Assembly: GCA_015499985.1 (NCBI GenBank)
Contig: JAAAUF010000004.1
Location: 51,626 to 115,625, forward strand
DNA: 64,000 nucleotides
Reading direction: 5' to 3'
Source of the DNA: Haplosporangium gracile
Lineage: Eukaryota > Mortierellomycota > Mortierellomycetes > Mortierellales > Mortierellaceae
Below the pieces are notes generated by a model. It saw only the letters and a list, made by a program, of their open reading frames with translations. It did not search any database and was not told the origin of the DNA. The first letter of the stretch is position 1; each line of letters begins with the position of its first letter. The position numbers and the translations under genes were made by a program. Positions 35,752 through 49,883 of this stretch are shown in pieces.

Positions 35752-38700
35752 TTACATGAACCACATGACTAAAAGGAAGGTTGTGAATAAAAGAAAATAA
35801 AAGAAACATTAGTACCGAATCCTAAGCAACCTTGAACGAAGACCATGATCAGAATATCCAAGTAAAATGAATTGGTAATTACCTCGCATGAGCTCGGGCT
35901 TGACAGTGAGGTAACTGCTAGCCTCACCGGCACCGGACTCGGACGACGTGGTGTCGCTCCAGCGTTCACCGCGGGCATGGAATCGGGCTCGGGCCGCGAC
36001 AATGTGCGCATAGTACGCGGGAGGCACATAGGAGACCGTTCGGGTGCATCGAGCGTACAGGTGACACAACTTGTAGCTCAAATCTTGAAGTTCATCCGAG
36101 GTGAACTTGTTGTCGTCATAGAGCACATAGTAGTGTGCAGGGCGCGAGGTACCGAGAAGACCGGCGTGACTTTGAAGGTAAAAGTCAAACTCGACCGGAT
36201 GTACGATTTCCTGATCAACCACGGTTCCGGGCATGCAATTACCAATACGATCACCTTCTTCACGTCGCATCGGGAAGAAGCGCGTGTGATGTCGCTTCTG
36301 AACGACGACAAAGGTTATTGTTGGCTTATACCCAGCCTCGAGTTTCTGACAGGCTGCCTTCAGGTCAACCACCTCGGTCTTGAGAACTTCCGCGAACTGA
36401 CCCTCGGAGACGCCGTCGCGATAGAACAGGATTCGCTCAGGCTTGCGGCCGCAGCTATTATGGACGAATGGGACATGGAAAGGAGAGATGAGGTTAGCTC
36501 AGCATCAGAATATAAAAAAGGAGGAGTCGTTTGTGTTCTGACACGCAGTCATCAAAGTCAAGCAGAAATAGGAGAGCAAGGACCTACTTTTGGTAGAAGG
36601 TTCTCAGCAGCTCCACAGTCATGTCACTGAGATCAGCGATGGTCTCGGTTCTCGCCGTCTGGACACGGACAGTTGCTGCATAGCGTGCAGCCTTGTTGTC
36701 CATCGACCCGACAAGAGAAGCAATGGACGGTCTGGTGTTATCACCTATTGATACATGGTAAAAGAATGACAGAATAAGAATGAGTGAGATGCTGAGCACG
36801 TATAACAAAGAGTCATTTCCTCCATACCATTCTCGTGTAACAGACATTCGATAAGAGATGTATGTAAAAGGTTACCTGGTTGAGGGTGAGAGACATCTCC
36901 ACCCAACACGAGAGTGGGCTTGGCCAGGAAGGGCATCATGCCGGTAGCGAGATGCTGGTTGACGCCACCAAGTTTGACGTTCATCTTGAGGCAGACGTTC
37001 GAGCAGTACTGCTTCTTGGGATCGCGCGTGTGCTTCGTTTGCACACACTGGGAGGACACACCGAGGACCGTGTCGGTTACGCGCTTAATTTCTGCGTAGA
37101 GAGGGACGCCGGTATTCGGAAGGATGCAAACCAGCAGCTGGGGCTGACTCTTGACCGCGTTGCCTGTCTGAATCCAGGCGTTCTTGAGGTGGCTCTCGAT
37201 ATCCCCGTGCGGGTTGTTGTACATGACTGGAGGGCTCTTGTTTGGAATGATCATGCCAGTCTCGGTGCACGACACGATGAGTTCTCGAACAAACTTGTTG
37301 ACCTGGGGAAAAGGGCAGTCTCGCTCGTTGCCAAAGACCACGATGCCCCAGGAGCCGAGGGTGGTGCCCTGGGTGACCTTCTTGTTCATCAGGTTCCAGG
37401 CGCCGTCACGGGGGATAAAGTTTGCATCGCGAGACTGGGGGTGGTAGCAGACGGTGGGTGCAGGAAGCGCTCGGGCCTTGATCTGGACCATCTCATTAGA
37501 GACCTTCATTCCGAATTCCTTGAGGTACTCGTTGTCGTCGTACTTCAGGATCTTGAGGCCATCCTTGATGTTGTTGGCACGCGCATGAGGAGGCTGGCTG
37601 GTGAATTTGATCATGTCGGCCGTCTGGCGTTCATCCAGTCTCTTCATATATCGCTGACCCTCGATGACGGAGCACAACTCGATCGGCAAGGTGATGTTCT
37701 TGCCAGCCTGGACACAAGGCAGCATAGGAAAGTTCAGGTTGATGTTGTACGCCTTTTTGAAGTAAGTGACCAGGTCGGTCTCGACCTCTTCCCCTTGCGA
37801 AGCGGGATCGTCGTTGCCTCTGGACTGCAGCTTGAACTTGGTGTCCTTGGCTGCGGTCTCTGTTAGAGCAAAGATCTTGAAGGATCGCTTGGCTCTCTCG
37901 CGATGGGACACGGTGAATCGAAGACCCTTGATGGTCTTTTCGATCTTCTTCCAATTGATAGGAGGCGATGTTCGACGGAGGTCATCTACAAAGTAATGAA
38001 TGTGAGACGCAAGGGTAAAAAATAGACGCTGAACGTTGAATATGTGTGATCTTTTTGTCTCTTACTGAGAAAATCATTGAGATGCAGTTTGGTGGCGTAA
38101 CATACCGACACTGCGCACGTTCGCGACCTTGACAACCAGTTCGAGCAGCGAGCCTGAGCGGAAGAACGCGGTAGCCGACACGTCCATATTGATCATCATC
38201 TTGCCTATAGATACGTATGTAGCCAGAGGAGAGGCGAGGTAGTTGGTCAGTAACAAAGCTTTACAAGACAAGGACAATGTAGAACCAACAAAAGTTGATC
38301 CTTGCACATACCAAAACATGTCACGGAAGAACGCTCTGAAGAAAAGACGTACCAATGGCAGGACGAGCAGACTGGTAAAAGCCTCTCCAGACATCCAAGG
38401 GGCCTGCGAGAGCCTGCTTGCCGATGGGGGTGTAGAAGGAACGACCGACTGTGGCGTAGAGCATGGCAGGTTGGTGACGGATTAGAATATCGAGGGCCAT
38501 GATGGCGGTGAGGCAGTTGTTGGTCAGAGCTGAGCGACCGTTGAGGAAGCGATGGAGTTCCTCGAGGTTGATGGTTGAGGCCTTCTTGACCTTGACCTTG
38601 AACTTTGGCGGAGGTCGGGCTGGGTTGGGGCTGGGCGTGATGTCGCTTGCGAGCACGATCTAGAGGTATTCAGACGTTGTAAGGTAATTAAAGTATTGAT

Positions 38701-45092: not shown

Positions 45093-46051
45093 ATGGTAAA
45101 CTACAGCAACCACGACATACACTCACTTGCACGCTCGTCCGAGATATCTGCTATTCTCAAAACAAACTTCAGTGATCAGCTTAGGAAGACGCTCTTTGGA
45201 CACGACAAAGCAGTTAACGTTCAGTGCCTCTCTCACACCATCTTAACCACTCTCTGATGACTTTGCTTCTTCATCTCCATAGTCTGACGCTTCCCCCAAC
45301 CCCGCCGGTGCCTCCCCTCGTGCTGCTGCCATCAGGTGCGTTCATTTCATTAACCGTTGGCGACTGCCTTTCTCCACTTTTGATTTCTTCAGGATGTTCG
45401 TTCAGGAGTGTCTGCCTTGGACAGACTTGCGAGATGATGGCTGATCAGCCCAAGAGATGAACAACGCAACAAACCTTCCTCGCCTGCCTTCTGCCTTGGA
45501 TTGGATCGCCCTGGATAACTACCTTACCTTACAGCAAGATGAACTAACCCCTCGATCTCACGTTTCGTAACCATAGGAGACGCACCACCAACTCCTCGTC
45601 TAAGGAGAAGACATCCCGCGCCCCTGGTCCCAGCACTGCCGGTATGATGCGCATCTACACCGACGATTCTCCCGGGCTCCGCGTGTAAGTCCACCTTGTC
45701 TTGCACTTCTAAGAGCTCACTTTTTTTTGTAGCAGTTAGCAGTTGGGCCTATGAGGAGTAGGGGCTGAGAATATCGGAAGTCAAAAGGGACGAGGATTCT
45801 TCGAGATCCCACCCCTTGCTTTTCATTTTTGGCGCCTCGAACGAAACTATCTCCCACCCATTTCGCCTATACATAGCTCTCGTTGCCTCGGCCATTTGAA
45901 CTCTCTGGAGTAAAAACTTGACCTAACAATTGCTATTTTTTTTTCTTGCTTCTTTCTGATTAGTGACCCCGTCGTCGTCCTTGTTTTGTCGCTGGCTTTC
46001 ATTGCCTCCGTCTTTGCTCTCCACATCTACGGAAAATTGACCAAGGCCTAA
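45093..46051 (+). CDS. SBH1: Sec61 translocon beta subunit
   Basis: Exons 45093-45095, 45283-45335, 45577-45684 and 45964-46051 encode 83 aa. It is a tail-anchored protein: a disordered N-terminus (SDASPNPAGASPRAAAIR then RRR and a Ser-rich stretch), the family motif GMMRIYTDDSPGLRVDPVVV, and one C-terminal membrane helix (LVLSLAFIASVFALHIYG). It is part of the ER protein-conducting channel. The initiator ATG alone forms the first coding exon; the donor GTAAAC follows directly and the acceptor at 45281-45282 leads into SDASPN. Reading through instead gives an unrelated frame that stops early. An AATAAA lies at 46122-46127. Confidence 0.92.
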
Positions 46052-46238: not shown

Positions 46239-48122
46239 CTATGTTCTGGACTCCTTGCGCATCTTGTAGGTGCAAATGGGACGCAAGATGGCGACGACCT
46301 TGACAAAGGGACCCAAGTCATCAATGATATCCGTAATTTCCTTGTAGGCGCCAGGCTGCTCCTCAAACAACAGATCAGTATCCTCACAGATCACGCTAGA
46401 TCCCAGATTGGTGGTCTGGAGGGCAGAGATCGAAGCCTGCTTCGAAGTTTGAGGACGTTTCTGGAGAGCCTTAGCACGAGGCAACAGACGTCCTGCACCA
46501 TGAGCAAGCGAGAGTCCGTTCTTGTCCTGGTCACCGTGCGGCATCACCAGGTATGAGAAATGGCCACGACTGCCCGGGATGACGACGAGACCGCGGTCGC
46601 TGGGTGCTGCTCCCTTGCGGTGGATCCAACAGGGCCGCTGAGGATCGATGGATTCAATGGTCTTTTGTTCGACGTTGTTGTGCCAGATGTCGAGGATCTT
46701 TGTGGCGTCCACTTCGGCATTCAAGCGGGATAAGACACGGTGTGCGATCAATTCACGGTTGGTACGCGCCCAGGCGCAGGCAAGGTCATGCTGCTTCAAG
46801 TAAGCCTGGCCAACCTCAGATTCCGCATCAATCCCCAGCAGCTTCTTCTCGGCCTTTGTCTGCATACTATTCGAGGTCTCCAAAACAGTCTGTCCAAACT
46901 TGCGAGACCCCGAGTGAACGATCAGGTACGTGTTGGCGTCTGTAAGTCCGATAGAATCACAGAGGTCCAGGTCCAATCGACTTTCGATGGTAACAAATTC
47001 CGCGAAATGGTTCCCACCGCCTAGGGTGCCCAGTTGGTCCAGGTGGGCCTTGCCAGTCTCGGTGTGCTCCTCGCCCAACTGGGAGATCAGGAACGCGTGA
47101 GGGTCACCCTCGGTCCAACGTCCCTCGAGACCGTGCAGTTTGTCGACAATCTTTTGGGGCTTGATTCCAGACGACAACTTCGTCCTATATACGGCCATTC
47201 CGCATCCCTAATTCAATTTTTACATATGACAAGTCAACGATTTGTTTGTTTGCTGTAGAAATAGCGCTCGACAAGGGATGGTTTCTGGTAGACTTACGAT
47301 GTCGTTTCCAATTAATGCTGGGTAAATGAACTTTTGCGTGATAAAAGTCGCGCCAATTGGGTACTGGTTGCCTATGAGTATGCAATCGAAAGAAAACACG
47401 TCGTCAATATCATCATGATCAGCTTAAAACGTCAACAATAGAACTAGAAACAAATAGTCACTCGTATACCTGGGTGAAGATCGGGTTGACCGACAACTTT
47501 GCGCATCCCGGGGAGCATGGCAGTCCTGTTCAATTGGGCGTTAGCCTCAGGGTCGACAAAACTTTTCTTGGCGAGGATCGATATCGTGGCAGAGACTTCC
47601 GAGTTGATGAGTAATGATTCAAAGTCCAAATCTGCTGCTGTTGAGGCAGTACTGTTCTTGTTGGCGTCTGTGGATGTTGAGGTTGTGGTATCACCGCTTT
47701 CCTGAGCTACTGATGATGTTGTTGATGCTGCTGCTGTGGCTGGTAATGACTCCTGTCGTGTCTGACCGACATATCCCTCTCCGCAAGAAACGTAGATAAG
47801 ACTATCGTCATCATAACGAATAACAAAAAGTACATTAGCCGTATGAAGTAGAGGAACACATGCGCCAAATTGACAAACAAATGTGTGTCTAAAAAATAGA
47901 ATACCTGTCCTGCGCAACCTTGCCGTTCTTCAGCCATGATGCATCCGCGAGCTCGATGCCATGGTTCAGGTAGAGAGTCTTTGCCTTCTTGAGCCGCAGC
48001 TTATTCTTGGCCAAGGTCAAGATATCGGCCAATGGATCTGAGGCGTCGTCTACTTTGAGAATTACGGCGGATTTTTGTGTCTGCTTGGCGTTGTTGACGA
48101 GTGTGAGGCGAATCGAGGGCAT
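46239..48122 (-). CDS. rtcB: RtcB-family RNA ligase with N-terminal ubiquitin-like region
   Basis: Exons 48122-47905, 47801-47470, 47371-47298 and 47207-46239 encode 530 aa. Residues 1-90 look like a beta-grasp fold related to doublecortin or ubiquitin domains (strands SIRLTLVNN and KSAVILKVDD, then KTLYLNHGIELADASWL and DSLIYVSCGEGYVG). A Ser/Thr/Ala-rich linker (about 91-130) follows, then an RtcB core. The RtcB active site is complete: Asp207 and Cys210 (NDIGCG), Asn274 and His275 (GGGNHF), His306 (VHSGSRKFG), His404 (HRKGAAP) and His444, the expected guanylate acceptor (LAHGAGR). RtcB joins 2',3'-cyclic phosphate to 5'-OH RNA ends with Mn2+ and GTP, in tRNA splicing or RNA repair. The GAAPSDRG and VIPGSRG wording is closer to a bacterial subgroup I remember than to animal RTCB. 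Fungi normally use Trl1. Confidence 0.9.
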
Positions 48123-48464: not shown

Positions 48465-49883
48465 ATGCCAGCAGAGGAATTCTACGTGAGATACTAGTAC
48501 GTCGACTACTTTACTCGCATTCACGAATTTCAAGCATGGACGACAGGACGGGACAGGAACATTCACGCTTTTTTCTGGCGAAACAATCGCCAGCAAGCCA
48601 TCTACTTTTTTGGACTGGATGCAGGGTTGAACGGGTGAATTTTTGGTGGCGACATGAAGACGCTGGACGTTATTTTGAACCTCCCCCTCCAAATCATAGA
48701 CAATATCTGTTAATTCAGTAAGTAAATCCTGCGGGAAGTCAGCATTAGATTTTAACCTGGCCCTCCACTTTTACCTACAACTGTTGCTAGCTCCGGCCAT
48801 CAAGGACGATATGGACACGAGTTCATCGAGTTTGAATTCCATGCCGATGGACGCTGCCGTTATGCCAATAACTCCAACTACAGGAACGACTCTTTGATCA
48901 AGAAGGAGAGTACGTTCCTTTGTTTTTTTTCTCTTTTTTGCTATGCGCCCTCTGATACTTTTTCCGCAACTACACTATCTGCCTTCACAAATATACACCA
49001 TGAAAAGGATCAACATAACTCAAGCGTGTACACTGACATTCTTGCCTATTTTCTCGTCTTTTGTTGCTGCAGTGACGGTGAGCCCATTGATGATCAAGGA
49101 GTTGAAGAGGATCATTGCAGATTCCGAGGTCATGAAGGAAGACGACCACAAGTGGCCAAAGAAGAACGTCGTCGGAAAGCAGGAGCTTGAGATTCGTTTC
49201 GGAAATGAGCACGTCTCCTTCGAGGTAAATGACTCTCTCACGGTTTTTGCTTCTGGAGGAAAAAAAAGACAATAATTACGCCTTTTCAGCTCAGGATATC
49301 AGATGGAAAGAGGAAATGGACAGCGGGACCATGGAAACGGGAGGAAAGCTTGCGTCGCCGAGAGAGGACATTTTGACAGGGGATCCTTTGTTCGGCTGAG
49401 GACTAGACTATACAATTGAACGTGTTAATCTCTGAAGAACAAGCATCTAAAAGCCTTGGAGCTGGATACCGCTCAGCACTAGATGCAACGCATGACCACA
49501 ACATCGCAGTGCAGGATACACTTGAGCAACACTCCACATACACAGAAATGGCAAAGACTGACAAGTTTTCGTTTCCCTTGTCTTTGTTTATGTTATTTAG
49601 ACCGCCAAGATCGGATCGTTGGTGGATGTCCAAGGCAGTGAAGACCCCGAAGGTCTCCGCGTCTTCTACTATCTGGTCCAGGATCTCAAGTGCCTGGTTT
49701 TTTCACTCATCACTTTGCACTGGAAGGTAAGAAAAAGACAGTTTAAGACAGACCCTGTTGCTGTTCCTCCAAGGATTGTGCTTGAACCTAGATTTTAAAA
49801 GTGAACAAATTTTTAACTCATATGTCAATGTTTTTTTTTTTTTTGTTTTTCTGCTGCTATTCCGACAGATCAAGCCCATCTAA
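48465..49883 (+). CDS. MAGO: MAGO NASHI, exon junction complex core subunit
   Basis: Exons 48465-48496, 48791-48909, 49073-49224, 49601-49726 and 49869-49883 encode 147 aa, the family's standard length. Near-universal blocks appear: [88 protein letters not shown] and [20 protein letters not shown] ending KIKPI. With Y14/RBM8A it locks eIF4A3 on spliced mRNA. The last exon is 15 nt (IKPI and stop), and intron 3 (49225-49600) is 376 nt. It diverges from the RtcB-like gene. Confidence 0.95.

What the first reader, a model, noticed from the sequence alone, without database searches (positions are those of the whole stretch)
46239..48122. RtcB-type RNA ligase in a fungus, with complete active site
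Seen: all RtcB catalytic positions are present (Asp207, Cys210, Asn274, His275, His306, His404, His444). The gene has three phase-matched spliceosomal introns, so it is a native eukaryotic locus and not contamination. Known: fungi typically ligate tRNA halves with the unrelated Trl1 enzyme, while RtcB serves animals, archaea and bacteria. Inference: the HRKGAAP and VIPGSRG wording suggests a bacterial-type RtcB gained by transfer, perhaps for RNA repair and not for tRNA splicing.
Basis: partly seen in the sequence, partly recalled or inferred. Interest (0 to 1): 0.75.

Follow-up and report, generated by a model that had tools for sequence, protein, structure and literature searches.

The report
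Fungal RtcB2 ligase with added domain
A soil fungus carries, next to its normal tRNA-splicing ligase, a likely RNA-repair ligase of the bacterial RtcB2 type; it is not a recent import but belongs to an old family found in fungi, amoebae and algae that has an extra domain at its front end.

Summary
A four-exon minus-strand gene (48122-46239) encodes a 530-aa RtcB-fold protein with an intact active site; one residue was misassigned (the H329 equivalent is His384, not His404). It passes the cut-off of the "release factor H-coupled RtcB" family (RtcB2) and separates from human, archaeal and canonical bacterial RtcB. The same genome has all three Trl1 domains and Tpt1, and no second RtcB, archease or above-cut-off PrfH was found, so a role outside tRNA splicing is likely. 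The transfer idea needs correcting: relatives occur in Mortierellomycotina, chytrids, some Basidiomycota, Nuclearia, Capsaspora, amoebae and green algae; 39 eukaryotic rows stand apart from 26 bacterial/viral rows (100/99). All 39 carry an N-terminal ubiquitin-fold domain, nearest in predicted structure to CIDE-N and then doublecortin; none of 29 bacterial/viral rows does. So this is an old fusion spread over several eukaryotic groups, not a gene newly acquired by this fungus. Best reading: a 3'-phosphate/5'-OH RNA-repair ligase related to bacterial RtcB2, without PrfH and with an added interaction domain. Ligase activity, substrate, localisation and assembly are untested; the direction of the ancient transfer is unresolved.

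The parts
46239..48122 (-). RtcB2-type RNA ligase gene, 530 aa, four exons
47905..48122 (-). exon 1: residues 1-72, most of the N-terminal CIDE-N/doublecortin-like ubiquitin-fold domain
47802..47904 (-). intron 1 (GTATTC..GATAG)
   Evidence: junction matches P0001
47470..47801 (-). exon 2: end of the N-terminal domain, Ser/Thr-rich linker, start of the RtcB core (to PDLHP)
   Evidence: in the P0001 model residues 89-141 have pLDDT below 50
47372..47469 (-). intron 2 (GTATAC..CATAG)
   Evidence: junction matches P0001
47298..47371 (-). exon 3: includes Asp207 (metal site)
47208..47297 (-). intron 3 (GTAAGT..ATTAG)
46239..47207 (-). exon 4: Cys210, Asn274, His275, Glu278, His306, His384, His444 (equivalent of the guanylylated His404 of Pyrococcus), Tyr496
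45220..46051 (+). neighbour: Sec61-beta gene; bounds are those of the stretch scanned
48465..49300 (+). neighbour: Mago nashi gene; start read by eye, end is that of the stretch scanned

Best explanation
The gene encodes a GTP- and metal-dependent RNA ligase of the RtcB2 branch. By the RtcB mechanism it would guanylylate His444, transfer GMP to an RNA 3'-phosphate (after opening a 2',3'-cyclic phosphate), and join it to a 5'-OH end. Shown here: gene structure, active-site residues, predicted fold, family and phylogeny. Inferred: activity; a role in repairing RNA cut by ribotoxin-like nucleases rather than in tRNA splicing (Trl1 and Tpt1 are there for that); a location outside the mitochondrion; and use of the N-terminal CIDE-N/doublecortin-like domain to self-associate or dock on a partner, bringing the ligase to damaged RNA in place of PrfH. 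The gene is an old eukaryotic one, probably inherited vertically within Mortierellomycotina, its family most likely from one early bacterium-to-eukaryote transfer followed by fusion with the N-terminal domain (inferred).
Against: No activity, expression or localisation data. The missing PrfH and archease rest on six-frame searches that ignore introns, and the archease control genomes that rang were all prokaryotic. Trl1 and Tpt1 matches include stop codons read through (presumably introns); no gene models were built. Intact Trl1 does not prove that this enzyme has no part in tRNA or HAC1-type splicing. Direction of transfer unresolved: with the canonical outgroup the free tree puts the bacteria inside the eukaryotes (eukaryotes one clade in 8% of bootstrap trees), though a eukaryote clade is not rejected (p-AU 0.54). 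The sequence evidence for the N-terminal domain's kinship is weak: no Pfam cut-off reached in the query, Drep4 at E 0.079, best Foldseek E 1.6e-3.
Confidence: 0.72

Rival explanations
1. It is a back-up or specialised splicing ligase (tRNA halves or a HAC1/XBP1-type mRNA), working beside Trl1.
For: PMC9223846 states that E. coli RtcB can stand in for Trl1 in yeast, including mRNA splicing (passage). All catalytic residues are present.
Against: The genome has Trl1 domains and Tpt1; no archease was found. RtcB2-PrfH gave no protection against the tRNA-cutting colicins E5 and D in E. coli (PMC9223846, passages).
Confidence: 0.15
2. A recent horizontal transfer from bacteria into this fungal lineage.
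For: The family model it passes is one named for bacterial RtcB2.
Against: Eukaryotic rows form one side of a branch (100/99); shared N-terminal domain in 39 of 39 rows; three introns; relatives in several eukaryotic groups.
Confidence: 0.04
3. The ligase is an ancestral eukaryotic gene, and the bacterial rtcB2-prfH operon took it from eukaryotes.
For: With the canonical outgroup, the bacterial rows fell inside the eukaryotes in the free trees.
Against: Long-branch warnings on that root; a eukaryote clade has a slightly higher likelihood than the free tree (p-AU 0.54). It would need loss of the N-terminal domain.
Confidence: 0.1

Closest known systems
Bacterial RtcB2 of the rtcB2-prfH operon (TIGR03073, release factor H-coupled RtcB)
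   Same: Homologues of about 375 residues are about 44-49% identical over 71-74% of the query; same active site; above the family's cut-off
   Different: No PrfH above cut-off in the genome; N-terminal domain and linker of 146 residues before the core
Animal/archaeal RTCB (HSPC117)
   Different: 24-27% identity in the structural alignments; separate clade; no archease found
CIDE-N domains (FSP27, DREP2-4) and doublecortin domains
   Different: Sequence similarity marginal (CIDE-N model matched 3 of 19 members, best 0.033); fused to an RNA ligase
Fungal/plant tRNA ligase Trl1
   Same: Also an RNA ligase; its three domains are present in the same genome
   Different: Unrelated domains (PF09511, PF08303, PF08302) and a different chemistry (chemistry from PMC3400036 passages)

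Membership tests
RtcB 3'-phosphate/5'-OH RNA ligases | Metal ligands and guanylylated histidine | tested here: met
   D95, C98, H203, H234, H329, H404 equivalents present; kept in 39 of 39 eukaryotic rows, and in 24 of 24 bacterial rows but for one Tyr at C98
RtcB 3'-phosphate/5'-OH RNA ligases | RtcB fold | tested here: met
RtcB 3'-phosphate/5'-OH RNA ligases | Ligase activity | not testable with these tools
   needs recombinant protein
RtcB2 (PrfH-coupled RtcB) | Score above the curated cut-off of TIGR03073 | tested here: met
   335.4 against 271.8 bits
RtcB2 (PrfH-coupled RtcB) | Score above the curated cut-off of the equivalog NF007153 (RNA ligase RtcB family protein) | tested here: not met
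   384.1 against 407 bits
RtcB2 (PrfH-coupled RtcB) | Falls with bacterial RtcB2, apart from canonical RtcB | tested here: met
RtcB2 (PrfH-coupled RtcB) | PrfH partner gene | tested here: not met
   No match over cut-off (best 77.6 against 166.65 bits); the two weak hits are an RF1 with PCRF domain and a short RF-1-domain protein, both scoring higher on RF1/RF2 models. The partner is not universal in bacteria either: 7 of 10 RtcB2 genomes
Canonical RTCB/HSPC117 tRNA-splicing ligase | Clades with human and archaeal RtcB | tested here: not met
Canonical RTCB/HSPC117 tRNA-splicing ligase | Archease partner | tested here: not met
   0 matches in own genome; introns could hide it
Canonical RTCB/HSPC117 tRNA-splicing ligase | CGI-99/RTRAF subunit (PF10036) | tested here: inconclusive
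   no match, but no control rang
CIDE-N domain (N-terminal domain) | CIDE/doublecortin ubiquitin fold | tested here: met
CIDE-N domain (N-terminal domain) | Pfam CIDE-N sequence match | tested here: inconclusive
   3 of 19 members, best 0.033; Ubiquitin_DCDC1 7 of 19, best 5.7e-6; KHA 4 of 19, best 2.5e-4
CIDE-N domain (N-terminal domain) | Opposed basic and acidic faces for head-to-tail assembly | tested here: inconclusive
   Of 39 rows, Lys/Arg at position 5 in 28, at 17 in 32, at 41 in 39; Asp/Glu at 57 in 32, at 60 in 21; surface geometry not computed

The most novel reading that the evidence does not exclude
Eukaryotic RtcB2 is a filament- or assembly-forming RNA-repair enzyme: its CIDE-N-like domain polymerises head to tail, concentrating the ligase on ribosomes or tRNAs broken by ribotoxins. 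This would be an old eukaryotic RNA-repair defence, kept in early-diverging fungi, amoebae and algae, in which a polymerising domain does the targeting that PrfH does in bacteria.
Probability: 0.2. Interest if true: 0.8.

Novelty: new variant of a known kind. Interest (0 to 1): 0.52.

Why it matters
[quoted passage not shown] The data here show a distinct RtcB2 branch in many early-diverging fungi and some Basidiomycota, beside Trl1 in the one genome tested. If active, it means these fungi have two chemically different ways of sealing broken RNA, one of them likely for repair. The shared N-terminal domain gives a handle for asking how an RNA-repair ligase finds its target in a eukaryotic cell.

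Tried and rejected
Canonical animal-type RTCB: rejected by trees. Contamination: rejected by introns, host neighbours and orthologues 54-94% identical in other Mortierellomycotina. Recent transfer: rejected. The N-terminal domain carried by viral homologues: not seen in the 5 viral rows tested (of 28 loci fetched).

A search by the N-terminal part alone (residues 1-100 of P0039) found only itself among 98 candidates. Monophyly of the 30 fungal rows without Selaginella was not rejected (p-AU 0.241). CIDE-N elsewhere in the genome: no hit, but no control rang. The fold searches were run on the whole protein; the N-terminal domain was not folded alone. In one search the bootstrap had not settled.

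Rows left out of the trees: 41 of the 165 fetched proteins were used (left out: unnamed metagenomic proteins, congeners, and some named ones such as P0123, P0129, P0144, P0152); 21 of 37 bacterial loci and 5 of 28 viral loci; of 12 canonical loci tried, L085 was dropped because my motif filter found no frame; L042, L047 and L048 were dropped from the careful trees for their long branches (they lay in the bacterial/viral clade).

Literature: nine searches (RtcB with PrfH, fungi/Trl1/transfer, release factor H-coupled, CIDE, Mortierella, chytrids/Basidiomycota, doublecortin, RtcB2/eukaryotes; and CIDE filaments). Passages of seven papers were read (PMC6514570, PMC13247085, PMC12699882, PMC9223846, PMC1586002, PMC3400036, PMC8647176); no paper was read whole. 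None of the listings or passages seen describes this eukaryotic RtcB2 group or its N-terminal domain. This is weak: the library is open-access only, three listings were cut (20 of 29, 20 of 78, 10 of 2,501, the last without RtcB in the ten shown), and the 1,183-sequence RtcB tree of PMC12699882 (diplonemids) may already hold members of this group, which I could not check. Two key papers were not held.

Full report
The gene. Splicing 48122-47905, 47801-47470, 47371-47298 and 47207-46239 gives 530 residues; introns fall in phases 2, 1 and 0, and the junctions agree with the annotated Linnemannia elongata protein (94% identity; sequence). It is the only RtcB match in the 37.5-Mb genome. Sec61-beta lies on one side and Mago nashi on the other.

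The active site. An alignment with Pyrococcus RtcB, canonical RtcBs and RtcB2s gives D207, C210, N274, H275, E278, H306, H384, H444, Y496 for D95, C98, N202, H203, E206, H234, H329, H404, Y451. The Pyrococcus numbering follows from the segment coordinates printed; the roles of these residues are recalled from the RtcB literature. All 39 eukaryotic rows and all 14 canonical rows keep this set, and so do the 24 bacterial rows but for one Tyr at C98.

The family. NCBIfam TIGR03073 (release_rtcB) is passed, 335.4 against 271.8 bits; the equivalog NF007153 is not, 384.1 against 407. In a quick tree of 82 rows with 14 canonical rows, RtcB2 and canonical RtcB are split by a branch with SH-aLRT 99; with six canonical rows and core columns of the RtcB2 rows only, 100/100, the bootstrap not settled. 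The relation to bacterial RtcB2 is thus firm.

Distribution and origin. The 120 best hits of two searches name many Mortierellomycotina, Basidiobolus, Calcarisporiella, Jimgerdemannia, many chytrids, Basidiomycota (Rhizoctonia, Ceratobasidium, Botryobasidium, Punctularia, Cantharellus, Rickenella, Calocera, Phenoliferia), Nuclearia, Capsaspora, Planoprotostelium, Arcella, Bryopsis, Ostreobium and Selaginella. The lists are capped, so absences from them mean nothing. In the RtcB2-only trees 39 eukaryotic rows lie on one side of a branch from 26 bacterial and viral rows, 100/99, with the N-terminal part included or cut away. With canonical rows as root, the free tree instead puts the bacteria (96/99) within the eukaryotes, and only 8% of 200 bootstrap trees have the eukaryotes as one clade; but the best tree with a eukaryotic clade fits slightly better than the free one (p-AU 0.54) and the program warns of long branches. 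So the family is old in eukaryotes, and the first transfer and its direction cannot be settled here.

What else the genome holds. Trl1's ligase domain (246.7 bits, with a KENG motif), kinase domain (119.4) and cyclic phosphodiesterase domain (43.7 and 28.6) lie in that order on contig C1078; Tpt1 on C343. Some of these matches read through stops, presumably introns. Archease is not found. PrfH is not found above cut-off; the two weak hits are an RF1 with PCRF and RF-1 domains and a short RF-1-domain protein, both scoring better on RF1/RF2 models, and I take them for mitochondrial factors (inference). In bacteria 34 of 37 RtcB2 loci have a GGQ frame overlapping or directly after the gene. Of 10 of these genomes searched, 7 pass the PrfH cut-off; the three failures hold the three loci without the neighbour.

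How it probably works. RtcB chemistry is inferred from conserved residues. The bacterial RtcB2-PrfH pair protects E. coli from colicin E3, which cuts 16S rRNA, and did not protect against tRNA-cutting colicins E5 and D (PMC9223846, passages). With Trl1 and Tpt1 available, repair of RNA bearing 2',3'-cyclic phosphate and 5'-OH ends is the best guess for the fungal enzyme, targeted by its N-terminal domain since no PrfH was found. This last step is a hypothesis.

Prior print. [quoted passage not shown] Databases already label such proteins "release factor H-coupled" or "tRNA-splicing ligase RtcB-domain". I found no paper on the group in the searches listed under Tried and rejected, with the limits told there.

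Noticed in passing
P0038 (Selaginella moellendorffii protein): A lycophyte RtcB2 lies inside the fungal rows of the tree and sits on a 1.13-Mb contig: fungus-to-plant transfer or contamination. A fungal clade without it was not rejected.
   Followed up: partly
P0026 (Basidiobolus ranarum): 66% identical to the window protein and placed inside Mortierellomycotina (99/79), nearer than Actinomortierella: possible fungus-to-fungus transfer or contamination.
   Followed up: no
L013, L019, L043: Bacterial RtcB2 genes with no GGQ frame beside them and no PrfH above cut-off in the genome, so RtcB2 without PrfH seems to exist in bacteria too.
   Followed up: partly
L047, L048 (viral contigs of 40 kb and 608 kb): Divergent RtcB2 genes on contigs labelled viral, without the N-terminal domain.
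   Followed up: partly
OR850930.1 (phage record of 4.8 kb): A record named as a Salmonella phage holds an rtcB2 53% identical to P0092; probably bacterial DNA (guess).
   Followed up: no
window 36745-38061 (-): Argonaute gene piece with PAZ, Mid, linker and Piwi domains.
   Followed up: yes
P0150, P0123, P0144: Some eukaryotic RtcB2 proteins are annotated with further domains (PF07690, PF00339, PF00850); could be gene-model errors.
   Followed up: no
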